A stretch of DNA of 64,000 nt from an uncultured Bacteroidia bacterium. GTDB taxonomy: Bacteria; Bacteroidota; Bacteroidia; Bacteroidales; UBA932. A program made the position numbers and the translations under genes. Where the stretch lies: NCBI GenBank assembly GCA_902785785.1, contig CADAAA010000001.1, forward strand, positions 434,001-498,000, in the 5' to 3' direction. Below, piece after piece: positions 26,557-43,979 of this stretch; within the stretch, counting starts at the first letter, position 1; each line of letters begins with the position of its first letter. Below the pieces are notes generated by a model. The model was not told where the DNA came from, did no database searches, and worked only from the letters and a program-made list of their open reading frames with translations.

Positions 26557-28188
26557 ATGACTGAAACCATCAACAAAACCACCCTCCGCGACTCCGCGGC
26601 GATGCGCTGGACGGCCCTGCTGCTGCTCGCACTCGGTATGTTCTGCGCCTATATCTTCATGGACATCCTGTCCCCGATCAAGGACCTGATGGAGTCCACC
26701 AGGGGTTGGGATTCCAAGGCATTCGGCACGATGGAGGGCGCCGAGACGTTCCTCAATGTGTTCGTTTTCTTCCTGATTTTCGCAGGTATCATCCTGGACA
26801 AGATGGGCGTCCGCTTCACTGCGGTCCTTTCCGGAGCAGTGATGCTTCTGGGCGGTTTCATCAAGTATTTCGCCATCAGCAAGGCTTTCATAGGCTCCGG
26901 GCTTGAGACCTGGTTCACGGACCATCTCAACTGGTACACCGGGATAGGCTTCATCGACGATGTGCTTCCGTTCTACCACGGCATGCCCGCATCGGCCAAA
27001 CTTGCGGCGATCGGGTTCATGATCTTCGGCTGCGGCTGTGAGATGGCTGGCATTACCGTCAGCCGCGGTATCGTCAAGTGGTTCAAGGGCCGGGAGACGG
27101 CACTCGCCATGGGCTCCGAAATGGCTCTCGCCCGTCTGGGCGTGGCTACCTGCATGATTTTCTCGCCCTATTTCGCCAAGCTCGGCGGCCATGTGGAAGT
27201 GAGCCGATCCGTCGCTTTCGGCGTGGTGCTCCTGTGCATCGCCCTCATCATGTTCATCACCTATTTCTTCATGGACAAGAAACTCGATGCACAGACAGGC
27301 GAGGCCGAGGACAAGGACGATCCGTTCAAGGTTAAGGATATCGGCAAGATCCTTTCAAGTCTCGGTTTCTGGCTTGTGGCCCTTCTCTGCGTGCTTTATT
27401 ATTCCGCTATATTCCCGTTCCAGAAGTATGCGGTCAACATGCTGCAGTGCAACCTTACCCTGACCGAACCCGCAGCAGGTTCGTTCTGGGCAGGGGAGAC
27501 GGTTACCATCATCCAGTACATCATCATGCTCGTGGTGGCAGTCTGCTCATTCGCCAGCAATTTCATCAAGAACAACAAAGGACTCAAATACGGCCTGATG
27601 GCCGTCGCTGTCGTCGCTCTGGTGGTCTATTGTCTTATGGGCTTCAAGCGCGGCACGGCTGAGACCATCTTCGCCGTGTTCCCGCTGCTGGCCGTGGCCA
27701 TCACTCCTATCCTCGGCAACTATGTGGACCACAAAGGCAAGGCGGCTTCGATGCTGCTCATAGGATCCATCCTGCTCGTGCTCTGCCACCTGACCTTCGC
27801 TTTCATCCTGCCCCTGTTCAAGGGCAGCGCCGTCGGAGGCACCATCGTGGCCTATGTCACCATCCTTGTCCTTGGAGCAAGCTTCTCACTGGTTCCGGCC
27901 GCGTTGTGGCCTTCCGTGCCGAAGCTGGTTGACGCCAAGGTCATCGGTTCGGCCTATGCGCTTATTTTCTGGATCCAGAATATCGGACTCTGGCTCTTCC
28001 CGATCCTGATCGGCAACGTGCTCACCAGCACCAACGCCCCCGGAACTCCTCCGGACCAGCTCAATTATACCTGGGCCCTGGTGATGCTTGCCTGCCTCGG
28101 AGTAGCTGCGATGCTGATCGGTCTCTACCTCAAGGTTGTCGACGGAAAGAAGCATCTCGGACTCGAGGAACCCAATATCACCGAGTAG
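26557..28188 (+). CDS. Major facilitator superfamily transporter
   Basis: 543 aa, 12 predicted helices with a central cytoplasmic loop (about residues 240-265, rich in acidic residues). Motifs include DKMGVRFTAVLSGA between helices 2 and 3 (MFS motif A-like) and YVDHKGKAASMLLIGS between helices 8 and 9. Paralogous to the next gene: both have SLVPAALWPSVPK and WIQNIGL/WVQNLGL. Start chosen at ATG 26557; an upstream TTG at 26548 is unlikely. Substrate unknown. 30 nt after the YfcC gene. Confidence 0.8.
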   Translation: MTETINKTTLRDSAAMRWTALLLLALGMFCAYIFMDILSPIKDLMESTRGWDSKAFGTMEGAETFLNVFVFFLIFAGIILDKMGVRFTAVLSGAVMLLGGFIKYFAISKAFIGSGLETWFTDHLNWYTGIGFIDDVLPFYHGMPASAKLAAIGFMIFGCGCEMAGITVSRGIVKWFKGRETALAMGSEMALARLGVATCMIFSPYFAKLGGHVEVSRSVAFGVVLLCIALIMFITYFFMDKKLDAQTGEAEDKDDPFKVKDIGKILSSLGFWLVALLCVLYYSAIFPFQKYAVNMLQCNLTLTEPAAGSFWAGETVTIIQYIIMLVVAVCSFASNFIKNNKGLKYGLMAVAVVALVVYCLMGFKRGTAETIFAVFPLLAVAITPILGNYVDHKGKAASMLLIGSILLVLCHLTFAFILPLFKGSAVGGTIVAYVTILVLGASFSLVPAALWPSVPKLVDAKVIGSAYALIFWIQNIGLWLFPILIGNVLTSTNAPGTPPDQLNYTWALVMLACLGVAAMLIGLYLKVVDGKKHLGLEEPNITE

Positions 28189-28189
28189 G

Positions 28190-29782
28190 ATGGCTGAAGA
28201 AGTGAAACGCCGCTATTCGCGGCTGGCATGGGTAGCACTGGCTTGTCTGGTGGTACCCATGTTCGCGTCATATTTCTTCGATGACATGTTCTCGACGATC
28301 TCGTATCTTTTCGAGGATCCGTCGAGGACGGCGCTGGGCTGGGATGCTGCCGGTTATGGCCTGTATACCAGCGGTTACAGTGTGCTGTGCGTATTCGGAG
28401 GACTGGTGATCTGCGGTATCCTGCTGGACAAGTGGGGAGTGCGTATCACCGGATCGATATTCGTGGGCATGATGGCGGCCGGCGCCCTGCTGGTGCTGCA
28501 TGCCATCACGGCAGGCTATGCGCCGGCCAAGTCCCTGCGTTTGGCTTATGTCGGATGCATGTTTTTCGGACTAGGCAGCGAGATAGCGGGCACGGCCGTG
28601 ACGCGGTCCATTGCCAAATGGTTCCGCGACGGGCCGATGGCGCTGGCCATGGGCCTGCAGCTGGCTATCGCCCGTCTGGGCACGGCCGTGGCCCTGGTCC
28701 TGGCGCCGCGCCTTGTCGTGGAGAATGCCGGCCATGTATACAGCCTGGCCGAGACGGCCCGTCCGGCCGTCTTCGGCATCGGGCTGATGGCCGCCGGCCT
28801 TATCCTCTGGGCCTTCTTCGTGGCGCTTGATGCCCGGAGATTCTCGGCAAAGCCGGGACCGAAGGCCCGGCGGAACGCCGTGGACTCATCCGACGGGATT
28901 GTTGCAACAGATTCGGACTCGAAAGCAGTGACTGATACCGACCATTCCTCCGATGATGAGGCATTTCGCCTGAAAGACGTCTTGAAAGTGCTGACCAACA
29001 AGAATTTCTGGTTGCTCGGCCTGCTTTGTGTCCTGTTCTACAGCAGTATCGTCGCATTTAAGAAATTCGCCGGGGCCATCCTGATTCCCCGTTTCGGAAT
29101 CCCGGCCGCTACGGCGGGGTGGATGGTGTCCATGCTGCCTTTTTCTACGGTCATCTTCGCCCCGCTTTTCGGTCTGTTGGTCGACAAACGCGGCAAAGGT
29201 ACCCGCTGGATGATACTCGGTTCGATACTTGCCCTGATCGCCCATCTGCTTCTGGCATTCGCCCCTGCCGGCGTACCTTTCTACGGCTATCTCAGCATGG
29301 TTTTCCTAGGTTTCGGATACTCACTTGTACCCGCTGCCTTGTGGCCTTCAGTGCCTAAGATCGTGCCTGACAAGGTGTTGGGTACGACGTATTCATTGAT
29401 CTACTGGGTGCAGAACCTCGGTCTGCTGTCCTTCAAATGGCTGGCGGGCGTGATACTCGGTGCCGCCGCGGGCTCCGCAGCTGCGGCCGCGGCTGGCTCC
29501 GCCGCTGCGGCATCTTCCGCCGGCTCAGCTGCTGCCGCGTCTTCCGCCGGCTCAGCTGCTGCCGCGTCTTCTGCCAGCTCCGCTGCTGCCGCGTCTTCTG
29601 CCAGCTCCGCTGCTGCATCTTCCGCCGGCTCCGTTTTTTCCGCCGGCGCCCTGAGCGGCCCCGTGCGCGTCGAACTGATGTTCGTCGCGCTCTGCGTCGC
29701 CGCGGTGGTCATCGCGCTGCTCTTCGCCCGCGTCTCCCGCCGCCGTCCCGAACTCTGTCTCGACACCCCCTCCGGCAAATAG
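28190..29782 (+). CDS. Major facilitator superfamily transporter with Ala/Ser repeat insert
   Basis: 530 aa, paralog of the preceding transporter and starting one base after its stop, so co-transcribed. Motif A-like DKWGVRITGSIFVG between helices 2 and 3 and DKRGKGTRWMILGS between helices 8 and 9. The loop before the last helix (about residues 425-485) is expanded by nine-residue repeats A-G-S-A-A-A-A-S-S encoded by 27-bp direct repeats at 29492-29623, absent from the paralog, which has a short ordinary loop there. ATG at 28190 chosen over an upstream ATG at 28136 inside the previous gene. Confidence 0.8.
   Translation: MAEEVKRRYSRLAWVALACLVVPMFASYFFDDMFSTISYLFEDPSRTALGWDAAGYGLYTSGYSVLCVFGGLVICGILLDKWGVRITGSIFVGMMAAGALLVLHAITAGYAPAKSLRLAYVGCMFFGLGSEIAGTAVTRSIAKWFRDGPMALAMGLQLAIARLGTAVALVLAPRLVVENAGHVYSLAETARPAVFGIGLMAAGLILWAFFVALDARRFSAKPGPKARRNAVDSSDGIVATDSDSKAVTDTDHSSDDEAFRLKDVLKVLTNKNFWLLGLLCVLFYSSIVAFKKFAGAILIPRFGIPAATAGWMVSMLPFSTVIFAPLFGLLVDKRGKGTRWMILGSILALIAHLLLAFAPAGVPFYGYLSMVFLGFGYSLVPAALWPSVPKIVPDKVLGTTYSLIYWVQNLGLLSFKWLAGVILGAAAGSAAAAAAGSAAAASSAGSAAAASSAGSAAAASSASSAAAASSASSAAASSAGSVFSAGALSGPVRVELMFVALCVAAVVIALLFARVSRRRPELCLDTPSGK
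29492..29623 (+). repeat. 27-bp in-frame tandem repeat inside the MFS gene
   Basis: Units at 29492-29518, 29519-29545, 29546-29572, 29573-29599 and a 24-bp unit at 29600-29623. Unit lengths keep the frame, so copy number can vary without breaking the gene. Confidence 0.85.
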
Positions 29783-29822: not shown

Positions 29823-29910
29823 TGCTGTAGACGGTCCAGAAAATGGACCGTCTACAGCATTTTGGGGCGTTTTTGACGTAGACGGTCCAATCTGTGGACC
29901 GTCTACGTCA
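29823..29910. repeat. Pair of 16-bp perfect hairpins, 51 bp apart
   Basis: 29823-29838 pairs with 29844-29859 (loop GAAAA) and 29874-29889 pairs with 29895-29910 (loop ATCTG). Both stems share TAGACGGTCCA; near the base they differ at two positions, and both arms change together. Confidence 0.88.
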
Positions 29911-29938
29911 CTTTCTCCCGTATAGCAGGGCATACAAA

Positions 29939-30095
29939 ACATCCTTCGGAAATCTGCCGAAGGATGTATGTCCTCTCCCGGGTGTCCTTCGGAAACTTGC
30001 CGAAGGATGTGCGACTACTCCGAGTATCCTTCGGAAACTTGCTGAAGGATATATGCCCTAACCCGGGTATCCTTCGGAAACTTGCCGAAGGATAC
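29939..30095. repeat. Four hairpins with TATCCTTCGG stems, about 42 bp apart
   Basis: Stems: 29939-29949/29957-29967, 29985-29992/30000-30007, 30025-30034/30042-30051 (one G-T pair) and 30067-30077/30085-30095. Loops are 7 nt, AAACTTG in three of the four. The unit is a ~42-bp direct repeat. No T-runs follow. Confidence 0.88.
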
Positions 30096-35161: not shown

Positions 35162-36031
35162 CTAGAGAGATATAAGTGAATCGATGTCAGGGGCTGCCCC
35201 TGTCATTACGGAATACCCGGAGACTGCCTGGTTCACGAGCCAGAGGTTTCCGGGTAAATATTTCGCCCCGGCGTCAAGCATCCGGGCACGAAGCAGCCCC
35301 GAGAAAGCGGGGTCGCGGTAATTGGCCTCCAGCACGAGAGGCTTCGCGGAGAAATCCTCCGCTCCCAGCTCCGCGAATACATCCAGAGCCATAGGCAACG
35401 CATAAACGATGAAATCCGCCAAGCGGAGCTCCTTGCGGAAATCCTGGATATCCGCAACGCGGAATCCGTACTCCGGAAGGCCTTTGATGAACGCCTCCGC
35501 CTTGGCGGCGGTGCGGTTCATCACGGTCGTGGCGAAGCCGCATTCCGCCGCGGCGAGTGCCGCGGCCTTGCCGGCTCCGCCGAGGCCCGCGACCAGCGCC
35601 GCCGGCCTCCGGCCGTAGCGTTCCACTAGCTGCGCCTTCACGAACTGATGAATCTTCACATGCGCCTTGCTTCCGAATGTGCCGTAGAATTCATGGATGA
35701 TGCCGGGGAAAAGCGCCTCGGCCACGGTGAGGATCACTCCCGTGAAGTCGGAATTATGCGCGCTGACCCCTTCAGGAGTCTTGACCAGAATGTTGGCCGC
35801 GCCAGTCAATGCCACGGGACCGGATACGATTTCAGCCTTCTCGTAAGCCTTCTCCTTGAACGGGGCAGTGACGTTGACGGCCTTGTATCCCTTGAGGAAC
35901 TTGGCGTAAGATTCTTCGAAATACTGGCCTTCGATCAGGTCGTAGCCGTATTTTCCATGGTAGGCGGTCTCGAAGAGCCTCGGGCTCTGCGAGTGTTCGA
36001 TGGGATGTCCTATGAGACCGAAATCAGGCAT
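35162..36031 (-). CDS. aroE: Shikimate dehydrogenase
   Basis: 289 aa. NADPH-dependent reduction of 3-dehydroshikimate. Substrate domain: FGLIGHPIEHSQSPRLF, VNVTAPFKEKAY with the catalytic Lys, and AHNSDFTG with the catalytic Asp. Nucleotide domain: AALVAGLGGAGKAAALAA (GxGGxxxA). Starts with an 8-nt overlap of the methyltransferase stop, so the lysS-methyltransferase-aroE genes form one unit. Confidence 0.94.
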   Translation of the reverse strand: MPDFGLIGHPIEHSQSPRLFETAYHGKYGYDLIEGQYFEESYAKFLKGYKAVNVTAPFKEKAYEKAEIVSGPVALTGAANILVKTPEGVSAHNSDFTGVILTVAEALFPGIIHEFYGTFGSKAHVKIHQFVKAQLVERYGRRPAALVAGLGGAGKAAALAAAECGFATTVMNRTAAKAEAFIKGLPEYGFRVADIQDFRKELRLADFIVYALPMALDVFAELGAEDFSAKPLVLEANYRDPAFSGLLRARMLDAGAKYLPGNLWLVNQAVSGYSVMTGAAPDIDSLISL

Positions 36032-36932
36032 TTCTCTGGCGTACGGCTTCGAACAGCAGGATAGCTGCGGACACCGATGCGTTGAGGGAGTCGAGCTCCC
36101 CGAGCATCGGGATGCGGATATGTCCGTCGGCGGCCTTTCGCCATCCGTCGGTGAGGCCTGTAGCCTCAGTCCCGACGACTATGGCCGTACCGCCCGTCAT
36201 GTCCGTATCGTAGTACCACGACGAATCCTGCAGCTGTGCCGTGTAAATATTTATCTTGTTGTCTTTCAGCCATTTGATGGCTTCTTCCGAACTGCAGCAG
36301 ACGACCTGGACGGTGAATACCGCCCCGATGCTTGCGCGGATGAGGTTGGGATTGTACAGGTCGGTCAGCGGATCGCATATCAGCACGGCGTCGGCTCCTG
36401 CCGCATCGGCGCTCCTGAGCACCGCTCCGATATTGCCCGGCTTCTCCACGCCTTCCAGCACCACCACAAGTGGCTTCTCCCTCATCTCCAGCCCGTCGAG
36501 CGTCCTTTCCTTCACTTTCACCTCGGCAATCATCCCCTCTGTCCCTCCTCTGTACGCAATCTTCTCGTACAGTTCCCTCGGCACCTCCACAATCTGCCCC
36601 GCATTCTCAAGGATGGTCTGCAGCATGTCAAGGTTCGGGGATTCACTTCCCGGAAACCGTGCCACCCTCGGCATCGTAAGAGGGGGGGACCCAAGCTTGC
36701 TTGGGGGGGGTCCGAAGGACGTTTCAGGGAGGTGAATCCCCGAACAACCTGTAATCTCCGGACAATAGAAAAGCGTGTCGATCTCGAAGCCGGCGCGGAC
36801 GCAGTGCCCGAGCTCCCGGCGGCCCTCCACGACAAAAAGCCCCATCTCCTTGCGGAGGCGGGCTTTCTCCTGAAGCGCCAGAAGCGTCTTGACCTTGCGG
36901 TTCTGCGCCGATGTCACCGACTCGACCCTCAC
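36024..36932 (-). CDS. TrmH/SpoU-family RNA 2'-O-methyltransferase with palindromic insert
   Basis: 302 aa, about 37 longer than usual. N-terminal substrate-binding domain ([37 protein letters not shown]), then a C-terminal SPOUT knot domain with [27 protein letters not shown] (motif 1, seen as [19 protein letters not shown]), [12 protein letters not shown] (motif 2) and [22 protein letters not shown] (motif 3). Residues about 63-100 (from [11 protein letters not shown] to FPGSESPN) fit no family sequence and are encoded by the palindromic element at 36633-36745, between the two domains. GTG start overlapping the lysS stop (GTGA). rRNA versus tRNA target is not determined. Confidence 0.88.
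36633..36745 (-). repeat. In-frame coding palindromic element, copy A
   Basis: Ends form an inverted repeat matching at 23 of 25 positions (36633-36657 with 36721-36745). Internal hairpins: TGCC/GGCA (36660-36673), CCCAAGC/GCTTGGG (36690-36705), GTCC/GGAC (36710-36720). Core shared with copy B at 43655-43775, including plus-strand GTGCCACCCTCGGCA and ACGTTTCAG. The length and phase keep the methyltransferase frame open. Confidence 0.88.
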
Positions 36933-43352: not shown

Positions 43353-43979
43353 TCACGAAATCAAGTTGGCTATGATGCCCGCCGTCTGCATCGGCGAGAT
43401 GTTGTCTATGTCAATGATATAGTCGGCCGCGGCGGTGTAGGCCGGCGTCCGCTCGGCCAGCATGGCCTCGAATCCGCCGTCCTTCAGCAGCGGCCGGTGG
43501 CTCTGGTCGCCGCCGAGGTGCAGCCGCAGCGTGTCTACGTTCGCCCTGAGGAAGAAGCACTTGCAGCGCTTCTTGATCAGCGCCGCATTCTCTGGTCTCA
43601 GTATCGTCCCTCCGCCCAGCGACAAAATAAAGCTGTTATTTGAAGGAGAATCTTGGTCCGGGTAGTTCCCTCTCGGAAACTGTGCCACCCTCGGCAACAT
43701 AAGAGGGAGGGGCCCATCGTCAGATGGGAGGGGTCCTGCGGAGCAGGACGTTTCAGAGTGGGAACTACCCGGACCCAAAAGGAGTTCAGCCAGCGCTTCG
43801 GATTCGAGGTCGCGGAAAGCCTTTTCACCCTGCTCGGCGAAAATGTCGGCGATGGATCTCCCTGTTTTGTCCACGATGTACTTGTCCAGGTCGACAAGCG
43901 GCATGTCGAGCAGCACTGAAAGCTCCTTTCCGACGCTGCTCTTCCCGCAGCCCATGAAACCGGTCAGCGCAACTATCAT
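43353..43979 (-). CDS. aroK: Shikimate kinase with palindromic insert
   Basis: 208 aa, about 40 longer than normal. Phosphorylates shikimate at O3. P-loop GFMGCGKSS (residues 7-15), substrate Asp/Arg in PLVDLDKYIVDKTGRSIADIF and GEKAFRDLESEAL, then the Walker B-side LSLGGGTIL. Residues about 68-110 (GPGSSHSETSC... to RGNYPDQD) are foreign to the family and come from the palindromic element at 43655-43775, lying between EALAELL and the FILSLGGG strand. ATG 43979 is 1 nt after the parC stop; an upstream start at 44009 would intrude into parC. Confidence 0.93.
   Translation of the reverse strand: MIVALTGFMGCGKSSVGKELSVLLDMPLVDLDKYIVDKTGRSIADIFAEQGEKAFRDLESEALAELLLGPGSSHSETSCSAGPLPSDDGPLPLMLPRVAQFPRGNYPDQDSPSNNSFILSLGGGTILRPENAALIKKRCKCFFLRANVDTLRLHLGGDQSHRPLLKDGGFEAMLAERTPAYTAAADYIIDIDNISPMQTAGIIANLIS
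43655..43775 (-). repeat. In-frame coding palindromic element, copy B
   Basis: Ends form an inverted repeat matching at 24 of 26 positions (43655-43680 with 43750-43775). Hairpins: TGCC/GGCA (43683-43696), CCCATC/GATGGG (43713-43728), GTCCTGC/GCAGGAC (43733-43749). Shares the core with copy A but has different end arms and different stem bases, changed on both sides. Confidence 0.88.

What the first reader, a model, noticed from the sequence alone, without database searches (positions are those of the whole stretch)
36633..36745. Palindromic element inserted in frame in a TrmH-family methyltransferase, homologous to one in aroK
Seen: residues about 63-100 of the methyltransferase are extra to the family and are encoded by a 113-bp palindrome with 25-bp inverted ends. 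The same core (minus-strand peptides ETS...[12 protein letters not shown] here and ETS...PLMLPRVAQFPR in aroK) occurs in shikimate kinase 7 kb away, in the same frame and orientation relative to the gene. Two unrelated, essential-type genes each tolerate it between domains or in a surface loop. Rickettsia palindromic elements behave this way; I know of no such family in Bacteroidetes, so this may be a new class of selfish coding DNA.
Basis: partly seen in the sequence, partly recalled or inferred. Interest (0 to 1): 0.93.

Follow-up and report, generated by a model that had tools for sequence, protein, structure and literature searches.

The report
In-frame mobile hairpins in housekeeping genes
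In a group of gut bacteria, a roughly 110-150-base hairpin-shaped DNA element has repeatedly landed in the middle of housekeeping genes without breaking their reading frame, so that the proteins should carry it as an extra floppy loop, a behaviour described before in Rickettsia.

Summary
Window 36633-36745 is a palindrome in frame inside a TrmH/SpoU methyltransferase gene; a 73%-identical copy lies in frame in aroK (43655-43775). A DNA search found 16 core copies in this genome; the 13 genic copies read through are all in open frames, in both orientations. A covariance model hits 120 of 151 genomes of the genus (probably Cryptobacteroides) and 4 of 294 others sampled from the order. The element is a conserved three-hairpin core inside long arms that pair within a copy but differ between copies, even when cores are identical.

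An 88%-identical AroK lacks the whole insert, and 27 of 27 copies in open frames (16 sites) differ from their best empty relative by a multiple of three. AlphaFold models put the TrmH and AroK inserts in disordered loops. Outer arms look partly local: empty-allele homology runs at least 8 nt into an own arm at 12 of 31 sites, against 31 of 367 with swapped arms.

It works like Rickettsia palindromic elements; kinship to them was not tested. The mover is unknown; a Y1-type transposase in trans is a guess.

The parts
36633..36745 (-). palindromic element, copy 1, in frame in the trmH-like gene; total 113 bp
   Evidence: empty and differently filled orthologs
36721..36745 (-). arm on the 5' side of the core (core orientation), copy-specific
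36710..36720 (-). hairpin H1 (GTCC..GGAC)
   Evidence: RNAalifold and pair counts on 14 copies
36690..36705 (-). hairpin H2 (CCCAAGC..GCTTGGG), double changes in 4 of 7 pairs
36659..36682 (-). 24-nt core motif CTCTTAYGWTGCCGAGGGTGGCAC, which forms most of hairpin H3
   Evidence: 7 of 7 H3 pairs never vary in 14 copies; pattern used
36633..36657 (-). arm on the 3' side of the core, copy-specific
36024..36932 (-). TrmH/SpoU-family RNA methyltransferase ORF (302 aa) carrying copy 1; residues 71-97 have pLDDT < 50 in the model
43655..43775 (-). palindromic element, copy 2, in frame in aroK; arms 43655-43680 and 43750-43775
43356..43979 (-). shikimate kinase (aroK) ORF carrying copy 2 (window coordinates converted from L010:1186-1809); ortholog L237, 88% identical, lacks the insert; residues 71-105 and 107-113 have pLDDT < 50

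Best explanation
The segment is one copy of a non-autonomous mobile palindromic element. A roughly 60-75-nt core of three hairpins (H1-H3, the third near-invariant in own copies) sits between long inverted arms. It is found in intergenic DNA and in coding sequence. In genes, the copies that remain are in frame and without stop codons in the used frame, so the element should be translated as a disordered loop of about 30-60 residues in an otherwise working protein (translation itself is inferred). Inferred, not shown: it moves as a folded single strand recognised through H3 by an enzyme supplied in trans, most likely a Y1 (IS200/REP-type) transposase. Inferred with partial support: the inner arm travels with the element, while the outer arm is written from sequence beside the insertion, one side being native and the other its inverted copy, by snap-back or template-switch synthesis that also keeps the two arms complementary.
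For: Dispersed copies: 16 in the own genome; 120 of 151 genus genomes, own included, with the model (at most 25 candidates scored per genome). Two loci of one MAG (RUG13584, L062 and L063) have identical cores, which points to recent spread. Insertion: of 7 AroK proteins aligned, L237 (88% identical), L091, L143 and L032 lack the insert and L010, L122, L140 have it. Frame: length difference from the best empty relative is 0 mod 3 in 27 of 27 copies with an open native frame outside known intergenic sites, 16 sites. Pfam finds domains on both sides in one ORF for 11 of 14 own-genome genes. Inserts are disordered in the TrmH and AroK models. Structure: 95.2% of cells paired, 23 of 37 pairs with double changes, 0 of 500 shuffles reach the covariation score. 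Arms: pairing with the own arm 0.59-0.98 over the first 27 positions against 0.25-0.65 with another copy's arm, in the 111 of 129 copies with a clear stem. Cores at least 95% identical, arms 52% identical on average, 83 pairs. Local origin of outer arms: 12 of 31 sites against 31 of 367 swapped, p 1.7e-5; outer-arm GC follows flank GC (rho 0.51), core GC does not (0.07). Y1: mean 10.7 element hits in 18 genomes with a Y1_Tnp match against 2.9 in 7 without, p 0.011.
Against: No mover was identified. None of 20 fetched Y1 loci holds the exact string TGCCGAGGGTGGCA, and several are flanked by other repeats. G014 has 14 hits and no Y1 match, though it is only 70% complete; the two Y1 matches of G016 are below Pfam's cut-off. 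The Y1 presence test alone is p 0.053, and MAG completeness confounds it. At 19 of 31 sites homology reaches 8 nt into neither arm, and at L008, L010, L140 and L152 both arms look extra. The native side is not fixed: 7 right only, 4 left only, 1 both. Relatives used are about 73-97% identical in the flanks, so loops have diverged. The 31 sites include orthologous copies, so p-values are optimistic. The 111 copies were chosen, and their anchor set, by own-arm pairing, which raises that figure. For L107 a second, less similar relative gives a length difference of 119, not a multiple of three. No direct repeats at the ends.
Confidence: 0.8

Rival explanations
1. The arms belong wholly to the element. 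They differ between copies because selection on the folded form (RNA or single-stranded DNA) drives rapid compensatory change; no target sequence is copied.
For: Seven loci with one identical core share an inner arm like GGC(C)AACTGCC at most of them. L270 and L275 in another family share the arm stretch GGAATATGCTTT. L014 and L170 keep the same arm peptide with the core flipped (read by eye). Both arms look extra at L008, L010, L140, L152.
Against: Cores at least 95% identical carry arms only 52% identical on average. Empty alleles match an own arm more often than swapped arms. Outer-arm GC follows the flank.
Confidence: 0.4
2. The element is removed or skipped at RNA level (self-splicing, or translational bypassing as in yeast mitochondrial byp elements, recalled) and never reaches the protein.
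For: Very stable fold: -87.5 kcal/mol for the 222-nt TrmH segment that holds it. It is tolerated in housekeeping genes.
Against: Length difference 0 mod 3 in 27 of 27 copies in open frames, and the same frame open through 28 of 29 filled alleles, the exception being an intergenic site; splicing or bypassing would not require this. No Rfam match at E up to 1.
Confidence: 0.05
3. It is a functional structured RNA or regulator (attenuator, terminator) selected for host benefit.
For: Strong covariation. Intergenic copies L008 and L016 sit between convergent genes (read).
Against: Both orientations and several frames in unrelated genes; present or absent between relatives.
Confidence: 0.08
4. It is an assembly artefact of metagenome bins.
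For: Most listed sources are MAGs, and palindromes can disturb assembly.
Against: The same insertion at the same place appears in separate assemblies (L003/L060, L004/L139). Frame is kept.
Confidence: 0.02

Closest known systems
Rickettsia palindromic elements (RPEs)
   Same: About 100-150 bp palindromic repeats, dispersed, many in frame in unrelated genes, solvent-exposed inserts, possible insertion hotspots (passages of PMC3767692 and PMC10969869).
   Different: Host is Bacteroidales, not Rickettsiales. Three-hairpin core with near-invariant H3; arms copy-specific. Sequence kinship not tested: no Rickettsia sequence was compared.
GTAG/CGTC-tagged REPs, including intragenic ones
   Same: Palindromic, some inside genes such as uvrA and other repair genes, often between convergent genes; the CGTC type lacks a known transposase and is listed in Bacteroidetes (passages of PMC3733652).
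   Different: REPs are 20-40 bp stem-loops with an unpaired tag; here GTC of H1 is paired and L009, L012, L016 have GCC instead. Median total length 128 bp.
Coding palindromes in nematomorph mitochondria
   Same: Long inverted repeats inside translated genes; the authors discuss arm conversion and template switching (passages of PMC6649704).
   Different: Both arms there encode conserved native residues; no shared core family was mentioned in the passages I saw.
MITEs
   Same: Short, non-autonomous, terminal inverted repeats, dispersed.
   Different: No target duplication found, and the terminal repeats are mostly not shared between copies.

Membership tests
Rickettsia palindromic elements | 100-150 bp palindromic repeat dispersed in the genome | tested here: met
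   94-136 bp with ungapped arms in the 15 own copies measured, median 128 bp with gapped arms in 113 copies; 16 core copies in the own genome
Rickettsia palindromic elements | in-frame insertion in unrelated protein genes | tested here: met
   27 of 27 copies in open frames 0 mod 3 against the best empty relative; Pfam
Rickettsia palindromic elements | insert exposed on the protein surface | tested here: met
   only for TrmH and AroK, as disordered loops in AlphaFold models; AroK model from 7 sequences; no solved structure
Rickettsia palindromic elements | sequence homology to an RPE family | not tested
   no RPE sequence or Rickettsia genome was compared
Rickettsia palindromic elements | host in Rickettsiales | tested here: not met
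   the 80 listed of 115 stretches are all titled Bacteroidales, Bacteroidia, Rikenellaceae or Cryptobacteroides
CGTC-tagged REP | 20-40 bp stem-loop with unpaired CGTC tag and short tail | tested here: not met
   GTC is paired in H1, and L009, L012, L016 lack it
GTAG REP / RAYT system | RAYT gene flanked by the same repeat | tested here: not met
   0 of 20 Y1_Tnp loci contain the exact string TGCCGAGGGTGGCA; the other matches were not fetched
GTAG REP / RAYT system | a RAYT in the carrier genome | tested here: inconclusive
   2 Y1_Tnp matches in the own genome; among 25 genus genomes 17 of 21 carriers have one, 4 do not
MITE | short direct target duplication | tested here: not met
   97 copies: 4-nt repeats 16 against 12 in control, 5-nt 6 against 6, 6-nt 1 against 0
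Reverse-transcribed element | a reverse transcriptase in the carrier genome | tested here: not met
   RVT_1: none in G000 (96% complete); present in 6 of 21 carriers

The most novel reading that the evidence does not exclude
Each insertion writes its own outer stem: it copies the neighbouring target sequence back as an inverted duplicate, giving an inverted rather than direct target duplication, and the stem is later re-copied arm from arm. That would be a mobile element whose termini are made at the target by self-primed or template-switch synthesis, spreading through the coding loops of housekeeping genes.
Probability: 0.35. Interest if true: 0.87.

Novelty: new variant of a known kind. Interest (0 to 1): 0.74.

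Why it matters
In-frame selfish DNA in housekeeping genes is best known, to my recollection, from Rickettsia and its small intracellular genomes. Here the same behaviour occurs across a large genus of gut and rumen bacteria, with many copies (129 distinct ones examined) and many empty sites, so insertion, tolerance and loss can be measured. It also gives a natural set of permissive loops in proteins such as AroK, TrmH, UvrA, RecR and AtpG. The copy-specific complementary arms pose a clear mechanistic question: how a stem comes to differ on both sides at once.

Tried and rejected
Stop-free windows as a frame test: 44 of 111 copies open through plus/minus 300 nt, but random windows are open in 1265 of 2580, so the measure says nothing; it was replaced by length differences from empty relatives. 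An early idea that the arm on the 3' side of the core is always native (after) failed: 7 right only, 4 left only, 1 both. Target-primed reverse transcription lost support because G000 has no RVT_1 match. A RAYT flanked by the element was sought and not found in 20 loci. A 400-genome search for closer empty sites scored only 2 candidates per genome and gave no relative nearer than the three already found. Rfam: only tRNAs in the window at gathering scores, nothing around the element at E up to 1. Viral contigs (exact core pattern), plasmids and phages: no match. In one search a simple score for which arm to keep was mixed and was replaced. Two outside hits, L273 and L276, could not be judged, because the slice shown was not centred on the match.

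Full report
Observation. The palindrome at 36633-36745 is real: 25-nt arms, 92% complementary, 63 nt apart, inside the ORF 36024-36932 on the minus strand. The second copy in aroK is at 43655-43775, 73% identical over 104 columns. In the own genome a DNA search finds 16 places with the core, some of them partial (of three further short rows two are this copy's own arms on the other strand and one is a 25-nt piece); the covariance model later finds 18.

Anatomy. Oriented by the core, a copy reads: arm, H1 (GTCC..GGAC or a longer variant), H2 (CCC[variable]..GGG), a near-invariant CCCTCTTAYGWTGCCGAGGGTGGCAC, arm. On 14 own copies RNAalifold gives 37 pairs, 23 with changes on both sides. A count on the same alignment gives 95.2% of cells paired and a covariation score of 0.543 against 0.165 in shuffles, 0 of 500 reaching it; sliding partners by one column drops pairing to 53-54%. 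The structure was derived from these same sequences. H3 never varies, H2 varies in 4 of 7 pairs, and 18 of 20 outer-stem pairs show double changes. Two own copies were left out of that alignment, L011 (divergent core) and L015 (half element).

The arms are copy-specific. Among 129 distinct copies carrying the exact H3 pattern, 111 have a clear stem by a score threshold. In these 111, own arms pair at 0.59-0.98 over the first 27 positions, and an arm paired with another copy's arm at 0.25-0.65, below 0.40 beyond position 8 except one position at 0.53; the threshold and the anchor were set on own-arm pairing, which raises the own figure. Copies at different loci with equal-length cores at least 95% identical share on average 52% of arm positions 7-24 (83 pairs). 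Seven loci with one identical core share an inner arm at most places but differ further out. Median arm length with gaps is 31 nt, median total 128 bp over 113 copies.

Genes hit. Own-genome copies lie in ORFs that Pfam identifies as SpoU methylase, UvrD helicase, flavokinase/FAD synthetase, radical SAM (HemN-type), Methyltrans_RNA, UvrA, ATP synthase gamma type, UPF0004/radical SAM, shikimate kinase, DNA polymerase III gamma/tau, TruB, RecR, PP-loop (TilS-type) and GHMP kinase (gene names such as HemW, RsmE, MtaB, TilS, IspE, AtpG are my reading). In 11 of these 14, matches lie on both sides of the insert in one ORF; in the HemN-type, gamma/tau and GHMP ones they lie on one side only. L015 (GHMP kinase) holds only half an element, so 13 genic copies were read through. 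L008 and L016 are between convergent genes. Both orientations occur, and the peptides show at least four frames in use. On 113 copies the mean number of open frames is 3.5 of 6 against 2.67 after shuffling; one antisense frame is almost never open.

In-frame insertion. For 32 copies a relative was aligned on both sides. L002/L074 is not an empty pair, since L074 carries the element. Of 29 with an open native frame, 28 differ from the best relative by a multiple of three; the exception, L008, is intergenic. L016 is intergenic too and should not count. That leaves 27 of 27 copies, at 16 sites because several are orthologous copies; for some of them the gene was not identified beyond the open frame. 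For L107 a less similar relative gives 119. L116 and L166, without an open native frame in the test, also differ by multiples of three (150, 141). The cleanest case is AroK: L237 is 88% identical and lacks the whole insert, as do the more distant L091, L143 and L032, while L122 and L140 carry it at the same place in another reading frame.

A reused loop. Of 30 TrmH loci read (the best-ranked from 58 of 61 genomes with a match, so biased towards the query), 13 have a model hit in the same loop, own included, 10 in sense and 3 in antisense orientation. L044 and L045 have another palindrome there, L042 a 33-bp tandem repeat, L033 and L047 other extra sequence, and L048-L059 no comparable insert. 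AlphaFold gives the TrmH insert pLDDT below 50 at residues 71-97 in a model of mean 84, and the AroK insert below 50 at 71-105 and 107-113 in a model of mean 77.9 built on only 7 sequences.

Distribution. DNA search: 14 of 25 genus genomes, 0 of 16 from other families. Model: 120 of 151 genus genomes at E up to 1e-3, own included. Order: 5 of 295 at E up to 1e-5, own included, with at most 12 candidates scored per genome; one other sampled member of the genus, G249, had no match there. The outside hits L270, L275, L271, L277 and L272 fold into the same architecture; L276 and L273 were not judged. No match in viral contigs (exact pattern), plasmids or phages.

Origin of the arms. At several sites the empty allele continues into one arm: L006 (20 nt), L014 (21), L062 (19), L146 (31), L009 (13), L016 (10), L102 (8) on the right side; L007 (30), L170 (17), L165 (15), L151 (8) on the left; L118 on both. 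Overall 12 of 31 sites reach 8 nt, against 31 of 367 when arms of other copies are put in; Fisher p 1.7e-5, optimistic because orthologous copies are included. Outer-arm GC follows flank GC (rho 0.51, n 97), core GC does not (0.07); genome-wide GC was not controlled for. At 19 of 31 sites there is no such homology, and at L008, L010, L140, L152 both arms look new. I read this as an inner arm that travels with the element and an outer arm written from local sequence on one side or the other, but relatives of about 73-97% flank identity cannot settle it. At TilS, L014 and L170 keep the same arm peptide while the core is flipped (read by eye), which suggests inversion between arms or independent use of one site.

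Mover. Y1_Tnp matches, mostly in frames of about 300 aa, occur in 18 of 25 genus genomes, those of G016 below Pfam's cut-off. Element hits average 10.7 with and 2.9 without (p 0.011; presence test p 0.053). None of 20 such loci contains the exact H3 string. RVT_1 is absent from the own genome and shows no association. A Y1 enzyme acting in trans is a guess.

Print. The listings showed no paper whose title or abstract start describes such elements in Cryptobacteroides or Bacteroidales; the library holds open-licence PMC papers only. The four papers holding both 'Cryptobacteroides' and 'palindromic' use the latter in the CRISPR sense (passages). Known relatives in behaviour are RPEs (passages of PMC3767692 and PMC10969869), intragenic REPs (passages of PMC3733652) and nematomorph coding palindromes (passages of PMC6649704). 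The original Rickettsia papers were not read.

Noticed in passing
window 29823-30095: Intergenic array of two short palindrome families (2 copies of GTAGACGGTCCA..TGGACCGTCTAC and 4 of about ATCCTTCGG..CCGAAGGAT), REP-like and unlike the element.
   Followed up: partly
window 29448-29643: 24-27-nt Ala/Ser-coding repeat near the C-terminus of the transporter-like ORF 28136-29782.
   Followed up: no
L044 and L045, TrmH loop: A different long palindrome (GACGGTGCCC..., AT-rich stem) occupies the same TrmH loop in two other species, so more than one family may use it.
   Followed up: no
L042, TrmH loop: A 33-bp tandem repeat coding about three units of PRDDNNEGA in the same loop.
   Followed up: no
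L034, L037, L039, L046; flank of L063: Sister core subfamilies in which the usual H3 sequence is replaced (for example GGCCACGGGCGGCCACGG), apparently at high copy in G074/G700.
   Followed up: partly
L190, L197, L193, L204: Y1_Tnp genes flanked on both sides by their own inverted or repeated palindromes, like REP-transposase units, in this genus (read by eye).
   Followed up: partly
L270, L275, L271, L277: Same three-hairpin architecture in two other families of the order, with arms shared between loci in one of them.
   Followed up: partly
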